From Candidatus Caldarchaeum subterraneum (GTDB lineage: Archaea; Thermoproteota; Nitrososphaeria_A; Caldarchaeales; Caldarchaeaceae): DNA of 64,000 bases. Numbering within the stretch: the first letter of the stretch is position 1; each line of letters opens with the position of its first letter. The notes beneath the pieces were generated by a model. That model was not told the DNA's origin and searched no databases. It was given only the letters and a program-made list of their open reading frames with translations. The position numbers and the translations under genes are program-made. Location: assembly GCA_000270325.1 (NCBI GenBank), contig BA000048.1, forward strand, positions 211,041-275,040. Reading direction: 5' to 3'. Of the stretch, positions 85-19,450 are shown in pieces.

Positions 85-99
85 GTGTTAACTGGTTTG

Positions 100-4298: not shown

Positions 4299-4778
4299 AT
4301 GCCTGAAACTGACCGCGTAAACTCTTCCAAATTATTTATGCGGATATGCTTGATGAACGCTGTCGCCGCGTGTTTCTTCACAGCCCCCGTGCTCGTCCCT
4401 GGGCTTGCTTTCCCCATCCTGTTAACACAGTGGGGAGCGGTTTACATGGTTTTGGGGTACTTCAGCTTTCTGGTTTATGGAGTGTTGGGGGCCTTGGGAT
4501 GGGCGGCGGCCTACAGGCTGTTGGATGAATCGGCTCAGGGTTACGACAAGGCCTTGACGTATCTCCAGCTATCTACGCATCTTGTCTCATCATATGGGGT
4601 GGCCTCGTCTCTCTTCATCGGAGGCTATTTGGGCGCTCGGCTCGTTTACGAGGGCAGGCCTGTTCAAGCGGTTGGAGCCATCATGGAGGTGGTGGAAATA
4701 CCTGCAGGCCTCTTCATAATGCTGGCTATAGCAAGCACACTGATGGGAATCATAAACATAACGAGGCTGAAAAAATAG
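4299..4778 (+). CDS. Four-helix membrane protein, paralogue 1 of 3
   Basis: A 159-residue integral membrane protein with four predicted helices. It is clearly related to the proteins at 8801-9310 and 9307-9822. Shared features are a first helix ending in a (T)xPVLVPxLAxPxxLTxW-type segment, an aromatic YxxFxxYGVxGxLxWxxxYxL second helix, a third helix after a cytosolic linker, and a final helix with IPxGxxIxLA. The second helix resembles those seen in small heme-copper-oxidase-associated membrane proteins, but I cannot assign a family. It has its own TATA-like box and is convergent with the first quinoprotein gene. A role in membrane electron transfer or quinoprotein assembly is speculation from context. 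Confidence 0.7.
   Translation: MPETDRVNSSKLFMRICLMNAVAACFFTAPVLVPGLAFPILLTQWGAVYMVLGYFSFLVYGVLGALGWAAAYRLLDESAQGYDKALTYLQLSTHLVSSYGVASSLFIGGYLGARLVYEGRPVQAVGAIMEVVEIPAGLFIMLAIASTLMGIINITRLKK
4328..4338 (-). promoter_or_regulatory. TATA-like box for the kelch protein gene
   Basis: On the minus strand GCATAAATAAT lies about 30-40 bases before the kelch ATG at 4296, inside the 5' end of the divergent gene. The two divergent promoters would therefore overlap. Confidence 0.3.
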
Positions 4779-4790
4779 AGATGGGGGTGT

Positions 4791-7007
4791 TTATCTTCTT
4801 CTGGTTCTGGCGGCTGTCACCGCCGCACCCGCTACCGCTACCACCGCTGCGCCGGCCAGCACGTAGACCCAGGTCGGAACAACTTCGACAGTCACCTCCG
4901 TCACCCTGGTTGTAACCAATGTCTGCACCTGGGTCTGAACACGTGTCACCTCCTGGGTCTGGGTTCTTGTCACCTCGGTACTCAAAGTCTGGACAACAGT
5001 TTGTTGGACGGTGCGTTCAGCAACGACATCGGGGAGTCCGAGCGAGGTAACGAAGCCCGATAATGCTGTGGGGGCCCAGAATCCTGGCAATGGGTTGGAG
5101 ACGGGGAAGATTATTCTTACTTTTCCGTCGGCTGTTGTCGCTATCGCTGGTTGTGTCATCACAGGCCCAGCTATCATTATGCGTCTCAGTTCAGCGCCCG
5201 TGTCCGCGTCAAAAACCCTGATTGTTCCATCGTTGAAAGTCGTGAATACTAAGCCGTTGGTTGTAGTGATACCTCCTCTGTAGGGCACATCGGGTATGAA
5301 GACGTTCCAGACTACGCGTCCGGTTGCGACATCTATGGCATAGAGTGTGGTGTTGGTTGGCTGAGTTGGCAGTGTTTCAAAAGCTACACCCCATCCATTG
5401 GGCCAACCGGTACCAGGTCCCACGTTTGCTAATGAGAATGCGCTGGGCGAATTGTAGACGGCTACGAACAGCCTGTTTCTAACTGGGTCGTAGGCGGGGT
5501 CGCTCTCAATCCCTCCTGTTGCAGGTGGATTTTGATAAAACTTTCCACGAGCCCTCAAGTAATTAGCGTCGTCAGTCCATTCTCCTTGCCATCTCCAGTT
5601 CATGTCCTGTGGGTTGAGTGGGTTAAGGAACTTGGAATATTTTGATGGCTTGATTCCGTATCGTGGGTCTCCGCCGTTCTTGGCCGGGTCCCATGAGTTG
5701 AAGGCCCATAATAATGAACCGTCTTCCGCGTTTAAGGCGTAGACGACACCATTCTTACATCCTTTGATTACTGCGTCGCGTCTCTGCCCACCTATCTGCA
5801 CATCCTTAAGGTAGACAACGCTCCAAGAACAGTCCCAGTCATAAAGGTCGTGTGTCGTCGTCTGGACACCCCAGATGGGCTGGCCGGTCTCGATGTTAAG
5901 GGCTAGGATAGACGCGCTCCAGAGGTTGGGGCCTGGTCTGAAGGTTGCGTTCCAGTCGGGGCTAGCTTGGTTCGTCGCCACGAATGCAACACCCTTGTCT
6001 TCGTCGACGGCGTATGCTCCTCCCCAGCCGGCTCCGTTGCCTGCGTAGCTAACCTTCTCACTGGGATACCGCTGCACAAACCTTGCATACCCCCAGTCGT
6101 CGTAAAGAAGCTGCCGCTTCTGTTCGGCTGGAAGAGTCTTGATGTTGACGAGCTTCTCACCATCCCATATCCATGCACCCCTCATCTGGTCAACCATCTT
6201 CAAAGTCCACTCGGGGTCACTGCCATCCTGCGGCGGAATATGGAACGCGCGCCAAATTATCTGGGGATTGCCACGGCCCTCAAGCCAAGGCTTCAAATCA
6301 ACACCCACAAAGAACCCGCGGCCGGCGCCCTGGTCTTCTGGAGTCGATACCCCTGTTACCAATATCTTACGTTTCGTGTCAATGACGAAGCTTGGCGTAG
6401 ATATGTCGTAGACTCCTCTATTACCTGGGACCTGGCTCAAGTAATCAGCTGTAAACACAGGCCACCGTAGCCGTATATCGCCTGTGAACGGGTCTATGGC
6501 AACGAGGTAGTAGTAGTTGGTTATTAGAAAGAGGTATGGTCTTCCATCAATCTCGAAGATGTGTATCTGATGGAAATGCCCCCTAAAGAAAGGCTCCCAA
6601 ATAGGAGGCTTTCCAGCCGTTAGTTCATCTACAAATTCTTTGGGCGGCTGCAGTGTCTGTGTCCACAACGTTTTACCAGTGGCGAGGTCTAGGGCATACA
6701 CACGGTGCCAGTTAGTCACGAAGTACACTACTCCTTTGTAGACCAGCGGAGTATGTATTACTCCCTCTGAACCTGAGAAGAACGGGTCGCCCACAGATGC
6801 GGGAGGTACGGGAAAAGCCCACTTGATCTCAAGGAATTTTATGTTTTCTTTGTTTAGCTGTGTCTGTGGGCTGTAGTTCCAGTTACCGGGTACGCTGTTG
6901 TACCTAGCCCAGTCCACCGACTGCTGCTGTGCAAGAACCAGCGGCGAAAACAGCAAAACCATGAATGCCGCAGCGATGGAAAGCCGCAAATTTTTTCCAA
7001 GATTCAT
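4791..7007 (-). CDS. Membrane-anchored PQQ-dependent dehydrogenase (quinoprotein 1)
   Basis: Extracytoplasmic quinoprotein dehydrogenase, 738 residues. It has a signal peptide (1-26), an eight-bladed propeller of the methanol/alcohol dehydrogenase type (about 30-650), a Thr/Gln/Val-rich stalk (about 664-710) and a C-terminal membrane helix with an RTRRR tail (712-738). Propeller W-motifs such as YALDLATGKTLW, LNIETGQPIW, LNAEDGSLLW and IDVATGRVVW repeat along the chain. The active-site segment HDLYDWD (386-392) has Asp390 at the catalytic position. Asp392 two residues later is the feature that marks lanthanide-using XoxF-type enzymes. Glu224 fits the metal-binding Glu. The adjacent-Cys disulfide of bacterial enzymes is absent. 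The likely reaction is oxidation of an alcohol or aldehyde outside the cell, passing electrons to a membrane or copper acceptor. A TATA-like box is at 7031-7040. Confidence 0.88.
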   Translation of the reverse strand: MNLGKNLRLSIAAAFMVLLFSPLVLAQQQSVDWARYNSVPGNWNYSPQTQLNKENIKFLEIKWAFPVPPASVGDPFFSGSEGVIHTPLVYKGVVYFVTNWHRVYALDLATGKTLWTQTLQPPKEFVDELTAGKPPIWEPFFRGHFHQIHIFEIDGRPYLFLITNYYYLVAIDPFTGDIRLRWPVFTADYLSQVPGNRGVYDISTPSFVIDTKRKILVTGVSTPEDQGAGRGFFVGVDLKPWLEGRGNPQIIWRAFHIPPQDGSDPEWTLKMVDQMRGAWIWDGEKLVNIKTLPAEQKRQLLYDDWGYARFVQRYPSEKVSYAGNGAGWGGAYAVDEDKGVAFVATNQASPDWNATFRPGPNLWSASILALNIETGQPIWGVQTTTHDLYDWDCSWSVVYLKDVQIGGQRRDAVIKGCKNGVVYALNAEDGSLLWAFNSWDPAKNGGDPRYGIKPSKYSKFLNPLNPQDMNWRWQGEWTDDANYLRARGKFYQNPPATGGIESDPAYDPVRNRLFVAVYNSPSAFSLANVGPGTGWPNGWGVAFETLPTQPTNTTLYAIDVATGRVVWNVFIPDVPYRGGITTTNGLVFTTFNDGTIRVFDADTGAELRRIMIAGPVMTQPAIATTADGKVRIIFPVSNPLPGFWAPTALSGFVTSLGLPDVVAERTVQQTVVQTLSTEVTRTQTQEVTRVQTQVQTLVTTRVTEVTVEVVPTWVYVLAGAAVVAVAGAAVTAARTRRR

Positions 7008-7030
7008 AAAGTTTTTACTCTATTTGTTGC

Positions 7031-7040
7031 ATTTAAACTT
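7031..7040 (-). promoter_or_regulatory. TATA-like box for quinoprotein 1
   Basis: Minus-strand AAGTTTAAAT is centred about 28 bases before the ATG at 7007, as expected for a leaderless archaeal transcript. Confidence 0.45.
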
Positions 7041-7071
7041 TTTTAAAATAAGCATCTCTTTTGTCTCTGGG

Positions 7072-7851
7072 TCAGGGCGCCACCTTCTCAACCAATCGAT
7101 ACATGAACGGCAGGGTGTTCAGAAGATATACAGCTGCCCAGTAGTATGATGGGACCACCCGGACTCCTCCGCCTTTCTCCGCCGCTGAAACGATTGTCTT
7201 GGCTACTTTCTCAGCTTTTATGAGAGGGCCCAATGGACGACCTCCTCTGGAGTAGAAGCTTGGGTTTTGGAAGAAAGCTGTGTCGACAGAGCCGGGGCAG
7301 ACAGCTGAAACTCTTATGTTGTGTTTCTTCAACTGCATGTCAAGGGCTCGTGAAAGAACTGTTACAGCTGATTTGACGGCGCAATATAGATTCATTTTAG
7401 GCACGGTGATGAAGCCTGCGAGGGAAGAGACATTTACTATCCTGCCGAACCTTTGACCAAGCATGTGGGGCAGCACTGCTTTGACAAAGTAGATAACACC
7501 CATCAAGTTTACGCTGACCTGGTACTCAACCTCCTCTAGCCCGAAGTCCTTAAACTCACCGTAAAGCCCAAAGCCGGCGTTGTTAACCAAAACATCTACG
7601 CGTCCATAATTCTCAACAGTCTCTTTGACAGTGTTGTAGACTTGCTCTTTGTCAGAAACATCGCACCGCAGCGGCTTAAACCTTCCACCGAAGGAAGCTG
7701 CTTCTTCGGCGACCTTTAGCAGCTCATCCAGCCGCCTGGCCACACCCACTACTGTCGAGCCGAGACGGGCAAACTCCAGCGCCGTCGCCCTACCTATCCC
7801 GCTTGAAGCCCCGGTGACCAAAACAACCCAATCACCATGTCTATAGGGCAT
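7072..7851 (-). CDS. Short-chain dehydrogenase/reductase (SDR)
   Basis: NAD(P)-dependent oxidoreductase of the classical SDR family, 259 residues, usual length. The cofactor motif TGASSGIG is at residues 13-20, NNAG at 90-93, the catalytic serine in NVSS (about 142) and YCAVK (Tyr156, Lys160). An Arg pair follows the second strand (VARRLDE), which favours NADP. The C-terminal 30 residues are hydrophobic and aromatic (YYWAAVYLLNTLPFMYRLVEK), suggesting membrane association as in some lipid or steroid-type SDRs. It is transcribed behind a TATA-like element near 7876-7888 and stands upstream of quinoprotein 1 on the same strand. The substrate is unknown. Confidence 0.88.
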   Translation of the reverse strand: MPYRHGDWVVLVTGASSGIGRATALEFARLGSTVVGVARRLDELLKVAEEAASFGGRFKPLRCDVSDKEQVYNTVKETVENYGRVDVLVNNAGFGLYGEFKDFGLEEVEYQVSVNLMGVIYFVKAVLPHMLGQRFGRIVNVSSLAGFITVPKMNLYCAVKSAVTVLSRALDMQLKKHNIRVSAVCPGSVDTAFFQNPSFYSRGGRPLGPLIKAEKVAKTIVSAAEKGGGVRVVPSYYWAAVYLLNTLPFMYRLVEKVAP

Positions 7852-7911
7852 CTTTCTCCAAGCTCTTGGGCATGCATTTATTTTTTAGCCTACAAAGCTT
7901 GTTAGATAATA

Positions 7912-7922
7912 AAGTTAATAAT
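7912..7922 (+). promoter_or_regulatory. TATA-like box for the Thr-rich surface protein
   Basis: AGTTAATAATT is centred about 27 bases before the ATG at 7944. A second AT-rich element (TAAAAAATAAAT on the minus strand, 7876-7888) serves the divergent SDR gene at a similar distance. Confidence 0.4.
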
Positions 7923-7943
7923 TAGGCTGGTTGGTCAGATGTC

Positions 7944-8795
7944 ATGTCTTCTAGTCGGCTTGTCAAGTTCGGTATTCCCATAGTTGTCGCTTTGGTGGCT
8001 GTCGGTTTGGGAATCACGTTTCTTGCCTCACAGCCAAGTCAGCCACCCGTTACAACAACCACTAAATCTCCAACAGTCACCACTCAGACAACAACTACTC
8101 TATCACCGACAACACCCCAAACCACGACAACCATTCAAACAACCTCACCCCCGACAACAATCACAACCACTCAAACAACCCCAACCCAAACCACAACTAC
8201 ACCCACTTTCCAAGTTAACCTCCGCAGCTTCTTCAACACCTACATACAGGACATCTCCAAAAGGGATGTAAGCGCAGTGTCCAGCAAGTACACGTCGGCC
8301 TCGGTGGCAGTCTGGGGTGGAAAAGCCGCGGGGCTAGGCGGTACATACAGAGGCGAGGGAAACATTAGGATTCTTTACATAGCAGCACTTGGAACAGCTA
8401 AAACAATCGAGTTCAAAGAAGCAAGTTACAAGGAACGGGTTGAGAACAACATGGGAATTATCGAGAGCGAGCAGGAGATAAGCGGCAACTCCGACATACT
8501 GGGGTCCTTCACAGGCAAAGTCAAGATAACGTTGAAGGTCACAGTAGAAGGCAACAGGCCGGTGATAATCGAGGAGAACTGGGATTATCTTGAGTTTAAC
8601 TACGAGAAGACTGGTGGAGCCACGACGTTTCCACAGTGGGCTGACGTCAAAGCCGGAAGGCCCATAGTCCTCGAGCCCAGCAAAAACTTCAAAGACCTTG
8701 CATGGTTTTTGAGCGATTACTTCGCTTTAACGGTTTACGCAGCCGTTGCAGCTGTTGCAGTCGTGGCTTTGACCGCTTCTCGACGGAAGAGGTAA
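7944..8795 (+). CDS. Surface-anchored Thr-rich protein with a SnoaL/NTF2-like domain
   Basis: A 283-residue protein with an N-terminal hydrophobic signal (about 8-28) and a long Thr/Gln/Pro stalk (about 33-90, mostly TTTT, QTT and PTT units). A globular domain follows (about 92-235), then a C-terminal membrane helix (about 260-278) with an RRKR tail. The globular part (FFNTYIQDISKRDVSAVSSKY..., later GNIRILYIAAL and an anti-parallel run of strands) looks like a cystatin-like SnoaL/DUF4440 fold. This is recognition by pattern, not proof. The same signal, stalk and C-terminal anchor plan is used by quinoprotein 1. It begins a likely operon with the two membrane proteins and the solute-binding protein that follow. 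Confidence 0.65.
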   Translation: MSSSRLVKFGIPIVVALVAVGLGITFLASQPSQPPVTTTTKSPTVTTQTTTTLSPTTPQTTTTIQTTSPPTTITTTQTTPTQTTTTPTFQVNLRSFFNTYIQDISKRDVSAVSSKYTSASVAVWGGKAAGLGGTYRGEGNIRILYIAALGTAKTIEFKEASYKERVENNMGIIESEQEISGNSDILGSFTGKVKITLKVTVEGNRPVIIEENWDYLEFNYEKTGGATTFPQWADVKAGRPIVLEPSKNFKDLAWFLSDYFALTVYAAVAAVAVVALTASRRKR

Positions 8796-8800
8796 GCAAG

Positions 8801-9310
8801 ATGGACACCCTGAAAACCTCTAAGCTTTTTTTCCTACTAGGTATAGCTAACGGTTTCATAACCATAGCCGTCACATCCCTAATACTCATACCAGACCTAA
8901 GGCTAGCCGCAGGACCGGGTTCAGTCCTGACACACAACGGCGACGTGTGGCCCGGTGCATGGTCTTGGGTCGCATACTTCACGTTTCTGATAATAGGAGT
9001 TTGCGGCGCGTTCCTGTGGTCTCTCGCATACTATTTACTAAAATCTCTTTTCGGGGTTGAAAGGACGCCGTCACTTCTTACAAAAAGTTCTCTCATTCTG
9101 TACGAAGTAGGTCTTTTGGCAACGGTGTCTCTCGCAGGGTACGTGGGACTTGTGGGGGGGAGATTTGTCGCCGAAGGAGGGTCAGCGGTCGTCGTCACAG
9201 CCCTAATTGGGTGGGCTGTAATTCCATCGGGAGCGGCTGTTTTCCTCGCCCTTCTCGGAAACCTTCTCGGTTTAGCCAACCTTGTGCTAGCAGTGAGCAA
9301 GAGACGATGA
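8801..9310 (+). CDS. Four-helix membrane protein, paralogue 2 of 3
   Basis: A 169-residue membrane protein with four helices, starting at ATG 8801, five bases after the preceding stop and behind a GGTAAG element. It matches the proteins at 4299 and 9307 in layout (N-terminal helix, WPGAWSWVAYFTFLIIGVCG second helix, two later helices, final IPSGAAVFLALLGNLLG). It is the most divergent of the three and lacks the third-helix TH found in the other two. It overlaps the next paralogue by four bases (ATGA). Function unknown. Confidence 0.7.
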   Translation: MDTLKTSKLFFLLGIANGFITIAVTSLILIPDLRLAAGPGSVLTHNGDVWPGAWSWVAYFTFLIIGVCGAFLWSLAYYLLKSLFGVERTPSLLTKSSLILYEVGLLATVSLAGYVGLVGGRFVAEGGSAVVVTALIGWAVIPSGAAVFLALLGNLLGLANLVLAVSKRR

Positions 9311-9822
9311 TTCTGGCTGAGAAGAAATCTCTCCATCCACACACTGCAGCACGTTATTTTCTGTTCACAACATTCGTCAACATATGTGCAGCAGTCTTAA
9401 TCACCACGCCTGTACTGGTTGCGAGGTTAGCCCTGCCTCTCAAGCTCACCGAATGGCCGGGGACATGGATGTTCATAGCCTACGGGGTGTTCGTAGGGTT
9501 TGGTGTATTTGGAAGCCTTGCCTGGTCCACGATCCATTACCTCTCAGCCACGTTGTTGAACATAAAACTCTTGAGGAGAAAACTTGTCGTAACACATTTG
9601 ATTCTCCACAACGTCGCCGCATACGGCGTCGGTTTTTTGATGGGATACGGCGCAGGCTACGTTGGCGGAACCGCTCGTCTTGAGGGGGTTGGCGTCGCAG
9701 TGATAACAGCTTTAATCAGCTGGACCGTTATACCTATAGGAATCCTCATATTCATCGGACTATTATCAGCCATTCTAGGAGTTTTCACAGTTCTGGACGG
9801 GTGGACGATGTCCAGAAGATGA
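9307..9822 (+). CDS. Four-helix membrane protein, paralogue 3 of 3
   Basis: A 171-residue membrane protein, start ATG 9307 overlapping the previous stop. Helix 2 reads WPGTWMFIAYGVFVGFGVFG and helix 3 contains VTHLILHNVAAYGVG, matching STHLVSSYGVAS in the paralogue at 4299. These histidines could be tested as ligands, but nothing in the sequence proves this. Coupled at its 3' end to the solute-binding protein gene (ATGA overlap). Tandem duplication with the gene before it is evident. Confidence 0.7.
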   Translation: MILAEKKSLHPHTAARYFLFTTFVNICAAVLITTPVLVARLALPLKLTEWPGTWMFIAYGVFVGFGVFGSLAWSTIHYLSATLLNIKLLRRKLVVTHLILHNVAAYGVGFLMGYGAGYVGGTARLEGVGVAVITALISWTVIPIGILIFIGLLSAILGVFTVLDGWTMSRR

Positions 9823-11279
9823 TTACACGGCGGAAAACTCTATCCCTATTAGCGGGGGCGGCCGCAGCCGGAGTCTTGGCGTCCTATGGATTATTTTCAA
9901 CTCAGTCACAGACACCTAGCCAAACACGTGACATTAGAGCGGTGTTGGCAGGAGCAGGCAGGGTGAACCCTCCGGACCAGTATGTCGAGTTCATGGAGTG
10001 GTTGGCTGAGGTTTCAAAGAACATAGAGACCGGTAAAGAGCCGGCAGTGGCGTTGATGGCCGAGTCGGCTGCCTTAGCTGTGCAGAGAATAGATGGTGAG
10101 TTTTTCCTAGCCTCTGGGCTGGCCTCAAGGCTAGACGTGTCACCTTACCCTGTTCATGTTTCAAAGACACTTTCGTCACTCACGGTGGGAGCGTCAATAT
10201 ACGACGCCGTGGCGGTTGAATCTTTTGATGTTAATCTATTCATAAACTACTTCACACCTGTTCAAGACTTCATGGAAAAATACCGCGAATACACATATGA
10301 GAAATTTAGGCTGGATGATTTCTTGCCTGAGTCCTTGAACCTTGTCGGAGTCTATCCGCCTAAGCTGGATAGTGGTGGGGAAAAAGGGAATGTGGTCATG
10401 CTGCCCTTCAGCACGCCGACCATGATAAACTTCTACAGAAGAGACATCTACGAAAAAAACGGACACGAGCCTCCAGCGACATGGGAGGAGTATCTCGAAG
10501 ACCTAAAAGCTTTGAACAACCCCTCCGAAGGATTTTTCGCGACAGCTCAGCAGGTCGGAAGTGACGTCGGAATAGTTACGGAGTTCAACAACCTTGTCCA
10601 TAGCTTCGGTGGCAGGCTTTTTGAAGTAAGCGATGGCAAGATAATTCCTGTAATGGATTCTGACGCCGTTGTGGAGGCGTTGAAAATGTATTCTTCTATC
10701 AGACCTTATGCCGACCCGGCGTCAATATCCTACGACTGGGATGCCGTCGCAACTGCTATGAGACGAGGCAGGATTGTTCAGGCAATTCTTTGGCAGGATT
10801 ATGCATGGATGATGGATGACCCTGTGAGGTCCGTTGTTGTCAACAAGGTCGGGTATAAGCCTAACCCAGCTGGGCCGGCTGGCTCTTTTCACCAGTTTGT
10901 GGGCGATGGCGTAGGTCTCGTAAAAAACGGTAAGAACCCAGTTGCTATGTGGCTATGGCTTCAATGGGCCACAGAGGTGGGTACAAGGATTATATTGATG
11001 CTGGACGAGAAAGCCAGAGTCGTGCCTATACGCAGAAGCGTTTTAATGGATAGAAATGTCCAGTCAACTCTGGAGAATCCAAAGTTTTCATCCGTCAAAG
11101 TAGTCAAAGAAATTTTGGAGATGAAGCAGGTTGCTTCCATACCTCCACTACCTCGGGCAAACCAGGTCTTTTTCATAATGGGGCGATACCTGAGAAGCGG
11201 ATGGTCGGGCGCCGACCCGCGTCAAACTTTGAGGGAAATGAAGAATGAAATCGAGTCTCTCGACTCTCTTAGTTACTAG
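9819..11279 (+). CDS. Extracellular solute-binding protein, ABC sugar type, with Tat-like signal
   Basis: A 486-residue family 1 solute-binding protein. The N-terminus MITRRKTLSLLAGAAAAG carries a twin-arginine-like motif followed by a hydrophobic stretch, so export folded through Tat is likely. Family features are PFSTPTMINFYRRDIYEKNG followed by PPATWEEYLEDLKALN, a central GVGLVKNGKNPVAMWLWLQW segment and the usual C-terminal helices. The ATG at 9819 overlaps the previous stop (ATGA) and is preferred over the GTG at 9801. No ATPase or permease follows, so it most likely feeds the transporter at 100-2881, 7 kb away. Confidence 0.85.
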   Translation: MITRRKTLSLLAGAAAAGVLASYGLFSTQSQTPSQTRDIRAVLAGAGRVNPPDQYVEFMEWLAEVSKNIETGKEPAVALMAESAALAVQRIDGEFFLASGLASRLDVSPYPVHVSKTLSSLTVGASIYDAVAVESFDVNLFINYFTPVQDFMEKYREYTYEKFRLDDFLPESLNLVGVYPPKLDSGGEKGNVVMLPFSTPTMINFYRRDIYEKNGHEPPATWEEYLEDLKALNNPSEGFFATAQQVGSDVGIVTEFNNLVHSFGGRLFEVSDGKIIPVMDSDAVVEALKMYSSIRPYADPASISYDWDAVATAMRRGRIVQAILWQDYAWMMDDPVRSVVVNKVGYKPNPAGPAGSFHQFVGDGVGLVKNGKNPVAMWLWLQWATEVGTRIILMLDEKARVVPIRRSVLMDRNVQSTLENPKFSSVKVVKEILEMKQVASIPPLPRANQVFFIMGRYLRSGWSGADPRQTLREMKNEIESLDSLSY

Positions 11280-11874
11280 TGTTGGCTTCATTGTTCTTTT
11301 GCTGTTTCCTTCTCCTATCTATGCCTCGATGGAACTGAGGTTTAACTTGGTTGACGGATTTGGAACAAGCAGGTATCGCCTTATTCTCGAAATGCCTGAC
11401 GAGCTTCTGATGAATGAGGAGATGAAGATAGGTTTTACTCTGTATCTGGATGAGCTTCCGCCGCTGAAACACTACACCGGATACCTCACTCTAACGTTTA
11501 CTCTAGTCTCAGAAAATGGACAGATGATATCCAGAACAAGCATAAGCAACAGAATGGAGCCCTATAAGGTGGACTACATCTACCCGGGACATCGATGGGG
11601 CCCTTACGTTTTGACGCTTAAGCCGGACTACTCAAGGCTTCAGGGTGAAACTAGTGTATCGGTGTATGTGGTCCTCGACGTTGAAGAATATGTTGAAGAC
11701 CAGCTTGGTGTCCCAGTTATACCCACGAAGCCGAGTCCCGAAACGGTCTTTGCCGGCGCGATTAAAGTTTCGCAGCCGCTGCCGCTTTTAGAGACGGGTT
11801 TAGCTGGATTCGCTATAGTTGTTTTGGTTGTGGCATATCTCTACATTAGACGAACTAGAAAACCTCCACGCTAG
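11245..11874 (+). CDS. Secreted, C-terminally anchored protein of unknown function
   Basis: A 209-residue protein with a clear signal peptide (cleavage likely after IYAS, about 28), a soluble domain rich in beta strands (about 30-175) and one C-terminal membrane helix (about 184-202) followed by RRTRKPPR. No catalytic motif is visible. The ATG at 11245 lies inside the end of the solute-binding protein gene (35-base overlap), so the two are co-translated and it may be an accessory of the binding protein. It converges on the MFS gene, sharing four bases with it. Confidence 0.6.
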   Translation: MKSSLSTLLVTSVGFIVLLLFPSPIYASMELRFNLVDGFGTSRYRLILEMPDELLMNEEMKIGFTLYLDELPPLKHYTGYLTLTFTLVSENGQMISRTSISNRMEPYKVDYIYPGHRWGPYVLTLKPDYSRLQGETSVSVYVVLDVEEYVEDQLGVPVIPTKPSPETVFAGAIKVSQPLPLLETGLAGFAIVVLVVAYLYIRRTRKPPR

Positions 11875-13364
11875 CCCCTGTTTCGCGCCAATACCTCATG
11901 CCAGAGAACGATCACCGCTGCTATGGCCGCTATTACTCCGCCCAACAGGAAGTTGAAACTAACGCCTCTGATGAAAGAGTTTATCTCGATCACTCCGCCC
12001 TCTAGGAATTTTTCGTAACCTATGCTGTAGTCGAGTATTATTGTCGACAACGCGATGCTCAAAGTTTGGCCCAGATGACGCATGAAACCCATCAAGCCGT
12101 TAACTTGCGCCCTTGTCTCTGGTTCAACAGATGCCAGCGCCGAGTTTGTGTTAGGTGCCGCGAAAAGCCCGATTCCAATACCTAGGATTGTTAACGATAT
12201 CGCCACGTAGATGATGCTGCTTTGCTGAGAAACAAGAGATAAGGCGAAAAGGGCTAAGGAGCATATGAACAAACCAAGCGTGGACACCGCCGAATACCCA
12301 TATTTATCTGAAAGAAGCCCGCCTATGGGTGACACCGCGAGAACAGTCAGAGGAAGAACCCCGAGAACGAAGCCGGCGGTCACAGGGTCCAAACCCATTA
12401 ACGCTGTCAAGTAAAAGCTGACCACGACCCATACACCATGATGGGCCGAGTACAGCAACAGTATCGCTAGAGATGCAGACCTCAGCCGCGTGTTTGTCGA
12501 CAAAAGTTTTAAAGGTATGACTTGGGAATCGCTTTTTCTTCTCTCCCTGAAAACATAGAGCATTACGCTGAGAAGACCTAACGCAACCATAAGCCAAGCT
12601 GGGAAGCTTATGTAGAAAAATGGCCTTAAGTAGAGGCCGAAAATCCGTACCTCCTCCACCAAAACCTCGATAATTCCTTTGTGGATTGGCCAAAGCGTGA
12701 CTCCGCCCAGAAGATTGAACACACCGATTAGCAAAAGAATTCCACTGAGCCAGTCGATTTTCTCTGCAGACTTTTTATGCAGGGCCTTTTCCCTTGGATA
12801 GGTTATGTAAACGAGGGCTGCTGAAACCAAGCACACAGGGACGTTGAGCAGGAACACGTCCCGCCAGCCAATAAGGCTCGTCAAGGTCAGAATAACCCCT
12901 CCCAGCAGCGGTCCCATCAAAAGCGCCGAATAGATTACTGCAACGTGCACACCCATGGCGAGGCCTCCCCCCTTCTCCTCGAAGACATCAACTATCAAGG
13001 CACGGCTATTGGCTAAGACCAGCGCTGCACCGATTCCCTGAAGAGCTCTGTAAACGAGAAGCTCGTAGATTGTGAAAGCTGTGCTAGAGAGATAGGCTGC
13101 GGAGGCGAAGATGAGCAAGCCTACGATAAACATGTTTTTCCGGCTCTTGCTGTCAGAGTACTGGCCCAGCAGCGGCATCAAAGCCGTTATCACTATCAGA
13201 TAGGTTATGGGAACCCAGCCTGCCACGGTTATGTGCGCTCTCAGGTCGCTGCTGATGGTTGGGAGAATAATGGCGACCAGCCCAGTGTCGAGAGGCGGAG
13301 GCAGAGTGCCTGCGTTAATTGCTGCCGCCGCCAGCCATCTTCTGAGTTGAGCCTTTTTCTCCAG
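11871..13364 (-). CDS. MFS drug/solute transporter (DHA2-like, 14 helices), non-AUG start
   Basis: Major facilitator of about 497 residues if read from a CTG at 13364. From the first GTG (13226) it would have only 451 and would lack the first helix. The reading frame is open upstream to 13385 and encodes a good DHA2-type first helix containing LDTGLVAIILPTISSDL, the family's LDxTIVNVALP motif. A strong GGAGGAG ribosome-binding site lies six bases before CTG 13364; an ATA at 13367 is the other candidate. The later motif GQYSDSKSRKN matches the family loop 2-3. The 5' end overlaps the end of quinoprotein 2 by 50 bases. Substrate unknown; proton-driven export is usual for the family. Confidence 0.8.
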   Translation of the reverse strand: MEKKAQLRRWLAAAAINAGTLPPPLDTGLVAIILPTISSDLRAHITVAGWVPITYLIVITALMPLLGQYSDSKSRKNMFIVGLLIFASAAYLSSTAFTIYELLVYRALQGIGAALVLANSRALIVDVFEEKGGGLAMGVHVAVIYSALLMGPLLGGVILTLTSLIGWRDVFLLNVPVCLVSAALVYITYPREKALHKKSAEKIDWLSGILLLIGVFNLLGGVTLWPIHKGIIEVLVEEVRIFGLYLRPFFYISFPAWLMVALGLLSVMLYVFRERRKSDSQVIPLKLLSTNTRLRSASLAILLLYSAHHGVWVVVSFYLTALMGLDPVTAGFVLGVLPLTVLAVSPIGGLLSDKYGYSAVSTLGLFICSLALFALSLVSQQSSIIYVAISLTILGIGIGLFAAPNTNSALASVEPETRAQVNGLMGFMRHLGQTLSIALSTIILDYSIGYEKFLEGGVIEINSFIRGVSFNFLLGGVIAAIAAVIVLWHEVLARNRG

Positions 13365-15207
13365 TATGTCTCCTCCCTCTTCTGGTTAGCATTACTATAC
13401 CTACTATGACAGCGGCCCCCACAGCCACCAAAACAAACGCTTCACCGAGGCTCAGACCGGTTCCTTGGCCTTGGACTGTCTGGGAAAGTTTGAAGGCCGC
13501 CACGACACCCGGCGTATAGGTGCCCCCGAGCTCCCCGCCTCCCGTTGGCACAAGCAGAATCGGCTCACCCTGAATGTCCGTGGAGATGCTGACCCCCGCT
13601 GCACCGAGGCCTCCGAGGCTAATCCTTCTGAGAAGCCTGCCTGTCTCGGCGTCAACCATGTAGAGGACACCTGCACGGTCTACTGCGTAAACAACTCCGC
13701 CGCTTACTACTACGCTTGCCGCCTGATATCTGTTGGGCATCTCAAACTTCCAAAGGATTCTACCCGTTCTTATGTCTACTGCGTACAAGGTCGAGTTCTG
13801 CTGAATCGATGGGTCGATTTGGCTTATGAAGCCTTCGATAACCTCGTTTTTGTAGAAGACAGGGCCTTTAGAGATTCTGTGACATGCCCTCTGCGTAGCT
13901 ACGTACAGTATTCCGTTGGCGAAGGCCGGGGGAGACTCCACCCCGCCCTGCGCTCCGGGGCAGTATGTTTTTCCGACCAGTACCTCTGTGGATAGTGTCA
14001 TGTCGGCGTTTTCCCCTGCGTTCACGTTATAGATGTTTAGCTCTTCTCCTCCTATTTTGATGGGCGGGTAGATGGGTTGACCGGTTCTGGCGTCGAGAAC
14101 ATAGATGTAGTCTGATTTCGCCGCCGCCATGACAACTTTTCTTGGAGCACCGGCTATCTCCACGTCGGCGAGTATCACACTCCAGCCCGGCTCAACAGCA
14201 ACCAAAGCATGGGGTATCGTTTGGTAGAACCATAGCAAGTCACCTGTCGAGGCGTTTAAAGCAACAATACTCATTGTGTAAAGGTTTGGCCCCGGCCTCT
14301 CGGCTGCGTCATACACAGGTGAAGGCTGGCCCACGGTCGCGTAGAGAACTCCGCTGGATTCGTCCACGGCTATCAAACCCCATAATGCGCCGCCGCCTAT
14401 CAAACTGTTCGAGCCCCGGTCGTTTGGATAGGGCCTGATGTTTCCCCGGGGAACCCCTGTCCTTACACCGTCGCCTGTCTCAACCACGTATTTGAGGCCC
14501 CATTCTGGGTCTCCTCCCGCAGGAGGCACAGAAAACCAACGCCACACAAGGTTGAAGTTGTTGATGTCGTATGCCGCGATAAACCCTCGTCCACCGAAAG
14601 CAGCCGTCGAAGCCCTAACTATGACGAGGTTTCTGTAGACTATGGGCGCCTGCTCACCCCAGTAGAAACCCGTGTTCCCCGGCACGTTGCATATGGTTTC
14701 TCCCTGTACGATGCGTAGGGGGCGCCCGTTAGATGCGTCCAAAACATGAACAGAACAGTCGGAAGCCATCATGTAGATGGCGCCGCCGTGGTATGAGATG
14801 GATTTCTGGTTAGCCACGTAAGCCCAGTAGGGTTTGCTGGTAAAGGTGGTCATGTTAACTTGATACTGCCACACCAAGTTTCCTGTGTCAGACCTTAACG
14901 CAACTACTCTGTTGTAGGGAGTGGCGAAATACACTATGCCGTTGACGACCAGAGGCGTTGTTTCTATACCCTGTAGAGGAGCTAACGACGGTATTCTGAA
15001 AGGATTTTCAGGCACCTGATAAAGCCATGCGAGGGCAAGCCTGTCAACGTTCTCCTTGTTTATGGCTGTTTGTGGGCTATAGTTAGTGTTCTTGAAGTCG
15101 TATGCAGGGAGACTCCATTCGTATCTCTCCTGACCTACGCCGACGGCGTTTAGTGATGCGAGAACCAGAAAAAACAAGAGACTGGCCTGCGTCATCTTCC
15201 GCAACAT
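13315..15207 (-). CDS. Membrane-anchored PQQ-dehydrogenase homologue (quinoprotein 2), altered active site
   Basis: A 630-residue propeller protein with a signal peptide (1-25), PQQ-type blades with motifs such as LRSDTGNLVW, LNASTGDLLW, LDARTGQPIY and VDIRTGRILW, and a C-terminal membrane helix (about 587-607) with a basic tail. It is about 100 residues shorter than quinoprotein 1 because it lacks the long stalk. The segment aligned with the catalytic HDxxDxD reads HALVAVE (333-339). The catalytic Asp is Ala337 and the second Asp is Glu339. The metal-binding Glu position also reads Ala (STAAFGGRG). It may therefore bind PQQ differently, use other chemistry or be non-catalytic. A TATA-like box lies at 15231-15240 for a leaderless transcript. 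Confidence 0.82.
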   Translation of the reverse strand: MLRKMTQASLLFFLVLASLNAVGVGQERYEWSLPAYDFKNTNYSPQTAINKENVDRLALAWLYQVPENPFRIPSLAPLQGIETTPLVVNGIVYFATPYNRVVALRSDTGNLVWQYQVNMTTFTSKPYWAYVANQKSISYHGGAIYMMASDCSVHVLDASNGRPLRIVQGETICNVPGNTGFYWGEQAPIVYRNLVIVRASTAAFGGRGFIAAYDINNFNLVWRWFSVPPAGGDPEWGLKYVVETGDGVRTGVPRGNIRPYPNDRGSNSLIGGGALWGLIAVDESSGVLYATVGQPSPVYDAAERPGPNLYTMSIVALNASTGDLLWFYQTIPHALVAVEPGWSVILADVEIAGAPRKVVMAAAKSDYIYVLDARTGQPIYPPIKIGGEELNIYNVNAGENADMTLSTEVLVGKTYCPGAQGGVESPPAFANGILYVATQRACHRISKGPVFYKNEVIEGFISQIDPSIQQNSTLYAVDIRTGRILWKFEMPNRYQAASVVVSGGVVYAVDRAGVLYMVDAETGRLLRRISLGGLGAAGVSISTDIQGEPILLVPTGGGELGGTYTPGVVAAFKLSQTVQGQGTGLSLGEAFVLVAVGAAVIVGIVMLTRRGRRHTGEKGSTQKMAGGGSN

Positions 15208-15230
15208 GATCTTGGAATCATCTTTCGACA

Positions 15231-15240
15231 GTGATAAATA
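15231..15240 (-). promoter_or_regulatory. TATA-like box for quinoprotein 2
   Basis: Minus-strand CTTATTTATC is centred about 29 bases upstream of the ATG at 15207. Confidence 0.4.
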
Positions 15241-15276
15241 AGTGATTCTTCAACTATTCTACATACACTAATAAAA

Positions 15277-15286
15277 TTTTATAAAT
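15277..15286 (+). promoter_or_regulatory. TATA-like box for the Nos-type ABC genes
   Basis: TTTTATAAAT is centred about 29 bases before the GTG at 15311, the clearest leaderless promoter in this region. It is divergent from the quinoprotein 2 promoter, about 45 bases away. Confidence 0.5.
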
Positions 15287-15310
15287 CGCCTGTTCGGTAA
15301 TAAACATCCA

Positions 15311-16225
15311 GTGTCAGAGATTTTAGTCGCCGAAAACGTGTCGAAGAGATACGGTAAACATGAGGCGCTTGCTGATGTTAGCTTCAACGCTAGGAAGGGT
15401 GAGGCGTTGGCTATTTTAGGCCCTAATGGAGCGGGCAAAACCACTCTGCTAAAATGCTGTCTCGGCCTTCTCGACTTCGACGGGAAAATCACCGTCGACG
15501 GTGTCGATGTAGGTACAAACGGCGCTGTAGCTCGGTCTAAGATGGGATACGTTCCCCAGAAAACAGCACTCCACGACAAGCTTAGAATAATCGACGAAAT
15601 GAAGCTGATGGCTCGTATTAAAGGGATTAGAGACGAGCAGAGATGCCGCGAAGTTCTGGAAATGCTTGGGTTTTGGGAGAGGAGAAAAGACCCCGTTGGA
15701 AGTCTTTCACAGGGGATGAAGCAGAGGCTGATGCTAGGGTTCACTCTGTTGGCAATGCCTGATGTTCTTCTTCTCGACGAGCCCCTAAGCAACATAGACG
15801 TCGAGGGGCAGATTTCGCTCTTGAACCAGCTAGATGAGATTAAGCGAGAGGGAAAAACAATCCTCATTTCATCCCATATCGTCGGAATGGGTAATGTTAT
15901 TGACCGTGTGCTTGTACTTAACAAAGGCCATGTGGCAGCTTTCGGAGAAATTAATGAGGTGCTGAGCAGGCTGAGGGTCAGAAACAAGCTTTACATCAAG
16001 CTGAACGATAAAGAGGCCGTAAGCAGGGCGCTTGAAGAAAAGCTCATGCAACAAGGCGATGTTTACGCTGTGCAAAGAATGGATGAATGGCTGATAGTGG
16101 AGTGCGAGTCACGTGACAAGGCTAGGGTAATATCCATAGTGTTGGATAGCGGTTACCAGCTAGCTGACATAGTGTCCGAAGCCGTTAGCCTTGAGAGACA
16201 CTACTACGAGTTAATAAAGAGGTGA
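15311..16225 (+). CDS. ABC transporter ATPase (NosF/Ccm-like)
   Basis: ATPase of an ABC-2 type exporter, 304 residues. Walker A GPNGAGKTT is at 37-45, signature LSQGMKQR at 132-139, Walker B VLLLDEP at 152-158, and ISSHIVGM holds the H-loop. A C-terminal domain of about 80 residues follows the ATPase core. Closest in style to NosF and similar ATPases that work with a NosY-type permease in maturation of copper enzymes. Its partner permease overlaps it by four bases (or starts at ATG 16225). Its position between two quinoproteins and beside a blue copper protein suggests a role in assembling the extracytoplasmic redox system. That role is inference. Confidence 0.85.
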   Translation: MSEILVAENVSKRYGKHEALADVSFNARKGEALAILGPNGAGKTTLLKCCLGLLDFDGKITVDGVDVGTNGAVARSKMGYVPQKTALHDKLRIIDEMKLMARIKGIRDEQRCREVLEMLGFWERRKDPVGSLSQGMKQRLMLGFTLLAMPDVLLLDEPLSNIDVEGQISLLNQLDEIKREGKTILISSHIVGMGNVIDRVLVLNKGHVAAFGEINEVLSRLRVRNKLYIKLNDKEAVSRALEEKLMQQGDVYAVQRMDEWLIVECESRDKARVISIVLDSGYQLADIVSEAVSLERHYYELIKR

Positions 16226-17061
16226 TGGATAGTTTGGCTTCAGCCACTCTTGCTCTAACGGTGCACACGTTTCTGGAGGGGTTGCGGGCGAGATGGGTAA
16301 TAGTTTATACTTTGGTTTTCTTCATGCTGGCGATAAACGTGCCCATGATCGTCTTGATATCGGCGAGGTACCTGCCTCCAGATTATCTAGAAGCCTATCT
16401 AACGGGGCTGATGGCTCTCTCCTTCCCATTTCTACCTCTTCTATCGCTTCCACTAGCTGCGACCTCAATAGTTGATGAGAAAGAAAGCGGTTTACTGGAG
16501 TACATGCTGTCGAACCCGGTTTCGAGGCTGAGTTATCTGATGAGCAAGTTGGCTGGCTTGTTTCTCTCCACGACCCTTGTGGTAGTGGGCGGCTATCTAA
16601 TAGCGGCTTTTCTCTCCTATGGGATTAGAATAAACCAGATGGGCGCTATTCTTCCGCTACTAGGTTCGGCGATGCTCCTGAACACCATAATGCTTCTGCT
16701 AGGCCTCCTGATATCAATTGTCTCAAAAAGGAAAATAACAGCCATGATGATAGGCATATTTTTCTGGTTTATGTTCACCGTCCTCAGCGACATAGGCTCC
16801 CTAAGCATACTGGTGAGTATAGCTGGCGCAGCTCCCATCGTATTGTTTTTGACAGCGCTAAACCCAATAGAAGCAGCTAGGTTGCTGGGCATCTACGGAA
16901 CACGCAACGTCGGGTTCACGGAGCTCGGAAGCATTGGATTGATTTTGCGGCAGCTGATAGGCGAGGGAGCACCATTGTTTATCCTTAGCGTTCAGCTAAT
17001 GTGGGTTGGCTTGCTGCTGATTCTATGCATCAACATATTCATACGCTCCGAGATTCTCTAG
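16222..17061 (+). CDS. ABC-2 type permease (NosY-like)
   Basis: Membrane subunit of the exporter, 279 residues with about six helices. It carries the ABC-2 signature region EKESGLLEYMLSNPVSRLSYLMSKL after the second helix and the conserved TALNPIEAARLLGIYG near the C-terminus, both typical of NosY. The start is GTG 16222 or the next codon, ATG 16225, which overlaps the stop of the ATPase gene. The 3' end overlaps the convergent quinoprotein 3 gene by 23 bases. NosD and NosL partners are not nearby, so it is not a nitrous oxide reductase cluster. Confidence 0.82.
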   Translation: MMDSLASATLALTVHTFLEGLRARWVIVYTLVFFMLAINVPMIVLISARYLPPDYLEAYLTGLMALSFPFLPLLSLPLAATSIVDEKESGLLEYMLSNPVSRLSYLMSKLAGLFLSTTLVVVGGYLIAAFLSYGIRINQMGAILPLLGSAMLLNTIMLLLGLLISIVSKRKITAMMIGIFFWFMFTVLSDIGSLSILVSIAGAAPIVLFLTALNPIEAARLLGIYGTRNVGFTELGSIGLILRQLIGEGAPLFILSVQLMWVGLLLILCINIFIRSEIL

Positions 17062-18982
17062 ACCTTCTTAACACAAAGAACAGGCTTGTTAAAGCCGAGG
17101 CCGCTAAGACAACAACAATAACATACAGCACCCAGCCTCCACCGGAGAAATCTGCTATGTTAAGCTGCATCGTGACTGTTCTCGTGATGGTTGTATGTTC
17201 AGTGATGACTGAAACCGTTCCGTTTTGTTCCATATTCTTGGGTAAAAGTCTGAATGATGCAATGTAACCGGGGTCGGTGACTGAGCTCATGGCTATTATT
17301 ATACGCGGCCCACCCTCCACGTCGACGCCTACCGTTGCATGAGAGAGTGTGGTGCCTATTGCAGGTTTGCTGTATTTGATTTCGCCGTCTTTTTCTGAAA
17401 ATATGTAGAGTCCTGAAGAAGAAGTTTGAACAAGTACGATATCCGAGGCGGCTGAGATAAATGAGCTGCCCACACCCTCCAGCTTCTTCTCCCAGAGAAG
17501 ACGGCCTGTTGAGAGGTCAACCGAGTAAAGCATTAGGTTTGACTGCTGAGATTGGCTGAAGACGTTTTTAGACCTTAGCGGCGGCTTTACCTCGATGCTT
17601 TCGCTGTAGAGGGGAAATGCGTAGTAGACGCTTCGGCTGTTAGGGTTTACGGCATAGCTGAGCAAGGCTTTAGGAGGCGGGGAGACGGTGACTGTTTTTC
17701 CAACCTGAACACCGTATCCCATGTATGGCGTGTTCATCTGGTTTGTGTCGTGAATGCTTAACTGGGACAGGTTGCCTCCTGTATTGACAGGTGGTTCGAA
17801 CATCCAGAGCATTTGGCCTGTGTCTTTGTCAAGGGCGTAGAGAACCCCGTTGCCGCACAGCGCCAGCACGGTGTTCCCCACGAGGGAGACACCGCCGTTG
17901 CATCCGTAGCCCCAAACATCATGCGGAATGGCTTGAAATAGCCACAGAACCTCGCCCGTCTCAACTTTGAGCGCTAAAACGGAGGAGGAGGGTATGTTGG
18001 GTCCTCTTCTGCCCTCAGCGTCGAGGGAAGGCATCGGATGCGATACACCCACGTAAACAACTCCAGCGTCCTCATCTAAGGCCCATCCGTTCATCCAGCT
18101 AGCCATGACTCCTGCTTTGGGAGGCGAGCCAGCCGCCGCCATCCAGTCGTTTAGAAGCAGGTTTTCATCGAAAGCTTTTAGGTTCACCACATCGTCACCA
18201 TCCATAGCCCATGCGTATCTTGTGTTTTTCACAAAGTTTAACGTCCACTCTGGCGTGTTATGTGTCTGCGGCGGCATCAGGAAAATGCGCCAAACCCTTC
18301 TCACACCCTCCTGGCTCACTGCATATCCGTCGATAAACCCTCTGCCAGAGTTCTCAGTATCGGGGGAAGTGGAGCCTGTGATTAAGATGTTTCGCCTACT
18401 GTCGTAGGCTATGTTGACAGGTATGCCTCCGTATTTTCCTATGTTGCCGTCAACAGCCTCATTTGGCGTCAAGAGGTCTACGGCGTGGACAAGTCTTCCA
18501 GTGAAAGAGTCCAGTAAGTAGATTCTCTGCCAACTTGTTCCAACAACCAGCAGCTCGTCGCTCCCTGCCTTGACGAGTAGGACCTGATATATGTGACCAA
18601 GCCGTTCAGACGAGACGCTTGGGTTTAAAGCAGGCGGCGGCTGCAGCTCTATCGTCCAGAAAATCTTACCACCTCTCAGGTCGAAGGAATAGACAAGATA
18701 GCCGTTTGTCACAGCATAGCCGACTCCATACTTGACCAGTATAGGATGAGTCACTCCATGAATGCCTCCAACCCTTGAGGGCGGGACGGGGAGAAACCAC
18801 TCCTGAAAAAGCTCACCTACGTTGTCGCTTGAGAGACTCGATGCGTAGCTGTATTTCATGTTATGCGGGCCTGCTCCGGCTGAAAGCCATTCTCCGCCGG
18901 TTGTCTGAGAGTTTGCTGAACTGAACATTGTTAACAGCATGATTACCGACAAAACCAGAGCTAGAGCCCGCATCTTGCCCAT
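17039..18982 (-). CDS. Membrane-anchored PQQ-dehydrogenase homologue (quinoprotein 3), lacking catalytic Asp
   Basis: A propeller protein of 647 residues from ATG 18982 (662 from an ATG at 19027). The inner start gives a proper signal peptide, MGKMRALALVLSVIMLLTMF. Blades carry FDLRGGKIFW, LKVETGEVLW, LDKDTGQMLW and VDLSTGRLLW. A C-terminal membrane helix and RRSRESR tail follow. The active-site segment reads PHDVWGYGC: both aspartates expected in HDxxDxD are Gly. The Cys in this segment and a second Cys 15 residues later could form a disulfide. The metal-binding Glu position is Asp (SPDTENSGRG). Like quinoprotein 2 it may not be a normal dehydrogenase. It is divergent from the blue copper protein gene. 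Confidence 0.82.
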   Translation of the reverse strand: MGKMRALALVLSVIMLLTMFSSANSQTTGGEWLSAGAGPHNMKYSYASSLSSDNVGELFQEWFLPVPPSRVGGIHGVTHPILVKYGVGYAVTNGYLVYSFDLRGGKIFWTIELQPPPALNPSVSSERLGHIYQVLLVKAGSDELLVVGTSWQRIYLLDSFTGRLVHAVDLLTPNEAVDGNIGKYGGIPVNIAYDSRRNILITGSTSPDTENSGRGFIDGYAVSQEGVRRVWRIFLMPPQTHNTPEWTLNFVKNTRYAWAMDGDDVVNLKAFDENLLLNDWMAAAGSPPKAGVMASWMNGWALDEDAGVVYVGVSHPMPSLDAEGRRGPNIPSSSVLALKVETGEVLWLFQAIPHDVWGYGCNGGVSLVGNTVLALCGNGVLYALDKDTGQMLWMFEPPVNTGGNLSQLSIHDTNQMNTPYMGYGVQVGKTVTVSPPPKALLSYAVNPNSRSVYYAFPLYSESIEVKPPLRSKNVFSQSQQSNLMLYSVDLSTGRLLWEKKLEGVGSSFISAASDIVLVQTSSSGLYIFSEKDGEIKYSKPAIGTTLSHATVGVDVEGGPRIIIAMSSVTDPGYIASFRLLPKNMEQNGTVSVITEHTTITRTVTMQLNIADFSGGGWVLYVIVVVLAASALTSLFFVLRRSRESRSV

Positions 18983-19057
18983 GTAAATAACCAAAGCTAT
19001 TAAGCATTTCCAAAAATAACGGAACACTCAAATCAAACTGGTTCGGAGGCCCATTGA

Positions 19058-19450
19058 ATGGGGTTCGCTCGAATTTTGATGCTGGTGGCTGCTGCCGCGG
19101 TCACTGCTACAGCTTTATTCACCATCTTCTTTATGGTTGAGCAGTCTGAGGCTGGTGAAAAAACTACTACTGTTTACATGTATGAATACTACTTTTCCCC
19201 AGATGAAATCACAGTAGGGCGGAACGTGAAGGTTTTGATTGTTTTCGTCAACAACGGCACCTATCCACACAACGCTTACTTGAGTCAGGAGAAAAAGGAT
19301 TTGGCGCCCGTTCTTTATCCCGGCGACTCTGCGTCGGTCGAGCTTTTTTTCAGGGAAAGAGGTGTGTTCGAGGTTTTATGCACAGTGTCTTACCCGGCAC
19401 CGGTCAGCCATTATGAGTTGGGGATGCGTGCGAAAATCGTTGTGCGGTAG
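19058..19450 (+). CDS. Membrane-anchored blue (type 1) copper protein
   Basis: A 130-residue cupredoxin with an N-terminal membrane anchor or signal (about 4-26) and a beta-barrel domain. Type 1 copper ligands are visible as His71 in YPHNAY, Cys108 in EVLCTVSY, His118 in VSHYE and Met123 in LGMR, spaced as in plastocyanin/sulfocyanin-type proteins. A CuA site is excluded because there is only one Cys. A GGAGG ribosome-binding site lies about ten bases before the ATG. It is divergent from quinoprotein 3 and is a natural electron acceptor for the quinoproteins or donor to a terminal oxidase. No oxidase gene lies in the window. Confidence 0.82.
   Translation: MGFARILMLVAAAAVTATALFTIFFMVEQSEAGEKTTTVYMYEYYFSPDEITVGRNVKVLIVFVNNGTYPHNAYLSQEKKDLAPVLYPGDSASVELFFRERGVFEVLCTVSYPAPVSHYELGMRAKIVVR

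What the first reader, a model, noticed from the sequence alone, without database searches (positions are those of the whole stretch)
4791..18982. Three quinoprotein dehydrogenase homologues with differing catalytic residues
Three PQQ-type propeller proteins with signal peptides and C-terminal membrane anchors occur within 14 kb. At the segment equivalent to the catalytic HDxxDxD of methanol dehydrogenases they read HDLYDWD, HALVAVE and PHDVWGYG. Copies 2 and 3 therefore lack the catalytic Asp by eye alignment, and copy 2 also lacks the metal-binding Glu. One active enzyme with two altered relatives on the same surface could mean binding partners, electron relays or a new chemistry.
Basis: partly seen in the sequence, partly recalled or inferred. 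Interest (0 to 1): 0.75.

Follow-up and report, generated by a model that had tools for sequence, protein, structure and literature searches.

The report
Archaeal quinoprotein island with altered sites
A hot-spring archaeon carries a gene cluster for four surface-anchored relatives of methanol dehydrogenase; two keep the usual catalytic residues and two have lost them but are still being preserved by selection, so they probably do something other than oxidise alcohols in the textbook way.

Summary
Three membrane-anchored, eight-bladed quinoprotein-type propellers read HDLYDWD, HALVAVE and HDVWGYG at the methanol dehydrogenase catalytic segment. Copy 1 keeps both Asp; copies 2 and 3 lack both, and copy 2 also lacks the metal Glu. 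The genome (genus Caldarchaeum) has a fourth copy about 10 kb outside the window (HDFYDHD), with a PqqC homologue, cupredoxin, CuA-like protein, MFS and ABC genes. In its order (44 genomes searched) this island occurs in exactly the three genomes that have PqqC, and it recurs in soil and marine Thaumarchaeota. The changes are not errors: all copies are under purifying selection. Copy 3's GxG is fixed in three genomes, and a similar GxG seems to have arisen separately in marine relatives (AU p 0.009). Copy 2's loss is lineage-specific: relatives have Asp or Glu there, yet seven of nine ligand-shell columns stay invariant in its clade. I think copies 1 and 4 are the enzymes, copy 2 a quinone-holding non-dehydrogenase, and copy 3 a structural or electron-transfer partner; these roles are inferred. 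No PqqB or specific PqqE was found and PqqC lacks several catalytic residues, so PQQ use is unproven. Multi-copy archaeal PQQ dehydrogenases, many without DxD, were already published.

The parts
4791..7007 (-). Copy 1: quinoprotein-type propeller, signal peptide, T/Q/V-rich stalk, C-terminal TM anchor; HDLYDWDC (both Asp kept), Cys pair, Lys at the Arg331 position
   Evidence: pLDDT 85.9, pTM 0.84; best PDB folds MDH/ADH
13315..15207 (-). Copy 2: propeller; HALVAVE, metal Glu to Ala; keeps Glu55, Trp243, Lys331 and Ser174 equivalents; no Cys pair
17039..19027 (-). Copy 3: propeller; HDVWGYGC, Arg/Lys331 to Gly; Cys pair kept
   Evidence: (pLDDT 82.4, pTM 0.82)
85..2881 (+). ABC transporter (ATPase and two permeases) of the island, conserved in C. 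fumarioli
3094..4296 (-). Secreted kelch propeller of the island
4299..4778 (+). 4-TM membrane protein, paralogue of 8702-9310 and 9211-9822, beside copy 1
7944..8795 (+). Membrane-anchored secreted protein (NTF2/SnoaL-like by eye, no Pfam match), paralogue of L009 9536-10243
8702..9822 (+). Two overlapping 4-TM protein genes; a soil orthologue weakly matches COX1 (E 2.5e-4, below cut-off)
9801..11279 (+). Sugar-type solute-binding protein
11871..13226 (-). MFS transporter beside copy 2; the pair recurs in soil and marine Thaumarchaeota
15311..17061 (+). ABC ATPase and ABC-2 permease between copies 2 and 3; also in all three Thaumarchaeota loci found by name
19058..19450 (+). Cupredoxin, divergent from copy 3; candidate electron acceptor
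   Evidence: (PF13473 34.7 bits, above cut-off)

Best explanation
The island encodes a cell-surface oxidation system. Copies 1 and 4 are the likely metal-quinone dehydrogenases, passing electrons to the island's copper proteins and membrane proteins. Copies 2 and 3 are former dehydrogenases kept for another job. Copy 2 still has the residues that would surround a quinone but no base or metal site, so I propose that it binds or hands over the quinone cofactor, perhaps with the adjacent MFS transporter. Copy 3 lost the base, the second Asp and the quinone-contacting Arg/Lys but keeps the propeller and Cys pair, so I propose a structural or electron-transfer partner. Shown: fold, residue states, their conservation, gene linkage, purifying selection. 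Inferred: loss of classical activity (about 0.85), quinone binding by copy 2 (about 0.55), the transporter link (about 0.25), the partner role of copy 3 (about 0.4).
For: Fold of copies 1 and 3 is that of MDH/ADH. Orthologue motifs: copy 1 D-W/Y-D; copy 2 A/A/P at the base; copy 3 GYG in all three. Copy 2 clade, 18 rows: 7 of 9 chosen ligand-shell columns invariant against 18.5% overall, Fisher p 1.6e-4, while 0 of 3 metal/base columns are invariant. Copy 3: the 25 columns round GYG are 72% identical against 35% elsewhere, p 2.5e-4. dN/dS about 0.07-0.15 for all copies by NG86, dS saturated. PqqC occurs in exactly the 3 of 44 order genomes that have the propellers and in all 3 soil genomes tested. 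Copy 2 lies beside MFS in the window, G001, G014 and several soil and marine genomes. Cupredoxin and CuA-like genes lie in the island.
Against: I found no biochemistry for any member. Copy 2 relatives keep an acid at the base position, so an ancestral enzymatic role is likely and only Caldarchaeales (and marine genus g190) would have lost it. The nine shell positions were chosen from memory of MDH structures and mapped by alignment. Two residues conserved in the copy 2 clade (Glu at 159, Gln at 476) differ from MDH, so the ligand may not be PQQ. PQQ synthesis is doubtful in this genome. The MFS and partner roles rest on gene order only.
Confidence: 0.45

Rival explanations
1. Copies 2 and 3 are active enzymes of a different chemistry, as tetrathionate hydrolase is within the same propeller superfamily without PQQ.
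For: Tetrathionate hydrolase belongs to PQQ_2, lacks the PQQ site and works without PQQ (PMC10859504); it appears among weaker fold matches of copy 3. GxGC appears to have arisen twice.
Against: Copy 3 is far closer in fold score to MDH/ADH than to tetrathionate hydrolase (E about 1e-28 against 1e-15). No new catalytic group was identified.
Confidence: 0.2
2. None of the island propellers uses PQQ; they bind another quinone or none, and the PqqC homologue makes something else.
For: No PqqB match, only generic radical-SAM matches for PqqE, a lone PqqD-like gene elsewhere. Archaeal PqqC rows lack His24, His154 and Lys214; the Caldarchaeales rows also have His84 to Arg and Tyr175 to Phe. All copies lack the vicinal disulfide.
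Against: PqqC scores E 5e-67 with 0 of 14 control genomes, is tightly linked to the propellers, and copy 1 keeps DxD and a Lys at the 331 position. PQQ can be taken up from outside in bacteria (PMC12124388, abstract only).
Confidence: 0.25
3. Copies 2 and 3 are decaying duplicates.
For: Residues at the base position of copy 2 vary (A/A/P); copy 3 is on a long branch.
Against: Open frames in three genomes, low dN/dS, conserved motif windows and conserved gene neighbours.
Confidence: 0.05

Closest known systems
PQQ-dependent dehydrogenase families of heterotrophic marine Thaumarchaeota (PMC7300363) and Gagatemarchaeaceae (PMC10640624)
   Same: Many paralogues per genome, colocalised, signal peptides and TM anchors, no vicinal disulfide; only 9 of 21 marine families keep DxD; a PQQ synthase is reported. 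Window copies fall among thaumarchaeal rows in the tree.
   Different: Those papers treat all members as dehydrogenases; the passages I read do not describe the Caldarchaeum island, the loss of the base within one orthologous clade, or the altered PqqC.
XoxF/PedH lanthanide-dependent dehydrogenases (6dam, 6zcv)
   Same: Fold; copies 1 and 4 keep the DxD pair.
   Different: No vicinal disulfide; a Cys pair next to the DxD and 331 positions instead; membrane anchor; copies 2 and 3 lack DxD.
Tetrathionate hydrolase
   Same: PQQ-family eight-bladed propeller without the PQQ site.
   Different: Much weaker fold match than MDH/ADH; I did not look for its catalytic Asp325 in copies 2 and 3.
acido-empty-quinoprotein TIGR04528
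   Same: Quinoprotein homologue taken to be without PQQ (by its name).
   Different: Copy 2 scores 221 bits against a cut-off of 650.

Membership tests
PQQ propeller superfamily (PF01011/PF13360) | Score above Pfam gathering cut-offs | tested here: met
   all three copies
PQQ methanol/ethanol dehydrogenase (TIGR03075) | NCBIfam cut-off 480 bits | tested here: not met
   159.8, 228.0 and 87.0 bits
PQQ methanol/ethanol dehydrogenase (TIGR03075) | Eight-bladed propeller fold | tested here: met
   models of copies 1 and 3 best match MDH/ADH; copy 2 by near full-length sequence alignment only
PQQ methanol/ethanol dehydrogenase (TIGR03075), copy 1 | Catalytic Asp | tested here: met
PQQ methanol/ethanol dehydrogenase (TIGR03075), copies 2 and 3 | Catalytic Asp | tested here: not met
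   Ala and Gly
PQQ methanol/ethanol dehydrogenase (TIGR03075) | Vicinal Cys-Cys disulfide | tested here: not met
   absent in all copies
Lanthanide-dependent XoxF type, copies 1 and 4 | Second Asp two residues after the catalytic Asp | tested here: met
Lanthanide-dependent XoxF type, copies 2 and 3 | Second Asp two residues after the catalytic Asp | tested here: not met
   Glu in copy 2, Gly in copy 3
Lanthanide-dependent XoxF type | Bound lanthanide and PQQ | not testable with these tools
   needs purified protein
acido-empty-quinoprotein TIGR04528 | NCBIfam cut-off 650 bits | tested here: not met
   128, 221 and 70 bits
Tetrathionate hydrolase | Catalytic Asp325 | not tested
   precedent only, from PMC10859504
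Archaeal (thaumarchaeal) PQQ-dehydrogenase-like families | Phylogenetic grouping with thaumarchaeal members | tested here: met
   copy 2 with soil and marine rows, copies 1, 3 and 4 with the Cys-pair rows
PqqC (TIGR02111) | Cut-off 240 bits | tested here: not met
   225 bits read through an upstream stop, 207 bits for the ATG-start ORF
PqqC (TIGR02111) | AHQQ-site residues as in Klebsiella PqqC | tested here: inconclusive
   R50, Q54, K60, R80, R157 and R179 kept; H24, H84, H154, Y175 and K214 changed in the window genome; residue roles from memory

The most novel reading that the evidence does not exclude
These archaea use a quinone cofactor other than PQQ, made with an altered PqqC, in propellers where the MDH acid/metal site is repeatedly dispensable and, in the copy 1/3/4 branch, a Cys pair beside the cofactor pocket takes part in electron transfer.
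Probability: 0.1. Interest if true: 0.85.

Novelty: new variant of a known kind. Interest (0 to 1): 0.5.

Why it matters
Genome papers read archaeal propellers of this kind as PQQ dehydrogenases and infer alcohol or sugar oxidation in abundant soil and ocean archaea. Of 77 archaeal members in the tree here only 30 have Asp at the catalytic position (a sample biased towards copy 2 relatives), and the PqqC homologues lack residues of the known enzyme. If many members are not dehydrogenases, substrate range and energy budgets inferred from their number are overstated. The conserved island supplies a small, testable set of partners.

Tried and rejected
Sequencing error or pseudogene: rejected, same states in independent genomes and low dN/dS. 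Copy 3 as an orthologue of the marine GHGC propellers: rejected by AU test p 0.009 on 32 rows with LG+G4; the same test on 79 rows did not finish. Cys-pair co-occurrence (34 both, 45 neither) as independent evidence for a disulfide: not counted, since it maps to one change on the tree. Profile of the 4-TM proteins against PDB: no match. A paper on the D303E mutant: none in the library. PqqC N-terminal fusion in YF1.bin89 (L127): the long frame looks like read-through of a GC-rich frame, not a fusion.

Full report
What is there. The window lies in a 1,680,938-base single-contig genome at C1:211041-275040. The three ORFs are as the finding says and belong to the PQQ propeller superfamily well above Pfam cut-offs, though below the NCBIfam cut-off for methanol/ethanol dehydrogenases.

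Residues. By alignment with XoxF 6dam and ADH 1kv9 (87 rows), copy 1 reads D at the catalytic Asp and D at the second Asp, which lanthanide enzymes need (PMC8546591); copy 2 reads A and E, copy 3 G and G. The Arg331 position is K, K, G; the Trp243 position W in all three. The vicinal Cys pair of bacterial enzymes is missing in all. Copies 1, 3 and 4 instead share a Cys right after the second Asp position and another just before the 331 position; the two always occur together (34 rows) or not at all (45 rows), but this is one change on the tree.

A fourth copy. L009 7726-9630(+), about 10 kb before the window, reads HDFYDHD. Its SKYG59 orthologue reads HDYYNLD, with Asn at the catalytic position.

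The island. From copy 4 to the cupredoxin at window 19450 (about 32 kb) most genes have counterparts in SKYG59 and C. fumarioli: ABC systems, solute-binding proteins, a kelch propeller, 4-TM paralogues, secreted NTF2-like proteins, an MFS transporter, a CuA-like protein (ba3 oxidase subunit 2 match E 2e-4), a cupredoxin and a PqqC homologue (E 5e-67, 0 of 14 controls). Among 44 genomes of the order, propellers of this kind and PqqC occur in the same three. Much of the gene set recurs in soil Thaumarchaeota MAGs Centralia_MAG_53, SubAcS15-57 and YF1.bin89 and in part in further soil and marine genomes; all three named soil genomes have a PqqC match.

Are the changes conserved? Copy 3: GYG in all three genomes at 43-67% identity, the 25-column window 72% identical against 35% elsewhere, p 2.5e-4 (only 9 of 587 windows are as conserved). 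Copy 2: A/A/P at the base and A/S/G at the metal Glu in Caldarchaeales; Glu at the base in eight soil-type rows; Asp in five marine rows; Gly in two marine rows. So copy 2's loss is lineage-specific. In the 18-row copy 2 clade seven of nine ligand-shell columns are invariant (p 1.6e-4), including Glu at the 159 and second-Asp positions and Gln at 476. NG86 dN/dS between the window genome and SKYG59 is about 0.07, 0.09, 0.15 and 0.11 for copies 1-4, with dS above 1.5 and hence saturated.

Phylogeny. On a 79-row tree with motif columns left out, copy 3 falls inside the copy 1 group on a long branch and copy 2 in the other superclade. Parsimony needs at least 6 changes between Asp and not-Asp. 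A GHGC motif in four marine rows is not one clade with copy 3 (AU p 0.009), so GxGC seems to have arisen twice; long branches advise caution.

Structure. AlphaFold models of copy 3 (pLDDT 82.4) and copy 1 (85.9) best match quinoprotein ADH/MDH structures.

Cofactor. No PqqB, no specific PqqE (all 14 controls also ring), one PqqD-like gene far away. The Caldarchaeales PqqC rows keep R50, Q54, K60, R80, R157 and R179 (Q54 is Leu in C. fumarioli) but not H24, H84, H154, Y175 or K214 (numbering from the Klebsiella chains, residue roles from memory). The window genome's PqqC has no ATG/GTG/TTG start covering its N-terminal helix. PQQ use is therefore plausible, not shown.

Reading. See best explanation and rivals. 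Prior work: 21 marine families with only nine keeping DxD and none the Cys-Cys motif (PMC7300363); up to eight colocalised genes per Gagatemarchaeum genome and a pqqC gain (PMC10640624). What I did not find there is the loss of the base inside an orthologous clade, the Caldarchaeum island, or the PqqC residue changes; supplements were not readable, so I cannot say they are unreported.

Noticed in passing
L009 18021-18647 (-), genome C1:209061-209687: PqqC homologue; its N-terminal helix is encoded upstream of the first ATG with no usual start codon before an in-frame TGA (possible ATT start or short protein).
   Followed up: partly
L009 10505-11113 (-): Secreted protein with CuA motif CQIYCGYGHPFQRM, weakly like ba3 cytochrome oxidase subunit 2, conserved in the island.
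   Followed up: partly
window 4299-4778, 8702-9310, 9211-9822 (+): 4-TM paralogues with no Pfam family; a soil orthologue weakly matches COX1, so they may be relatives of an oxidase subunit.
   Followed up: partly
L125 and L126 (genomes G490, G495): Island fragment with PqqC in which both propellers lack the catalytic Asp (HAIHGHE or HAMHGHE, and HDLAGHGC).
   Followed up: partly
L030 1447-3297 (SKYG59): Copy 4 orthologue with Asn at the catalytic Asp (HDYYNLD) while its two relatives keep Asp.
   Followed up: no
window 28831-31137 (-): Molybdenum hydroxylase-type large subunit among transport and amidohydrolase genes, judged by eye only.
   Followed up: no
L048-L049 (G014 C2 from about 479835): Sequence withheld (reads N), so the far end of the C. 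fumarioli island could not be read.
   Followed up: no
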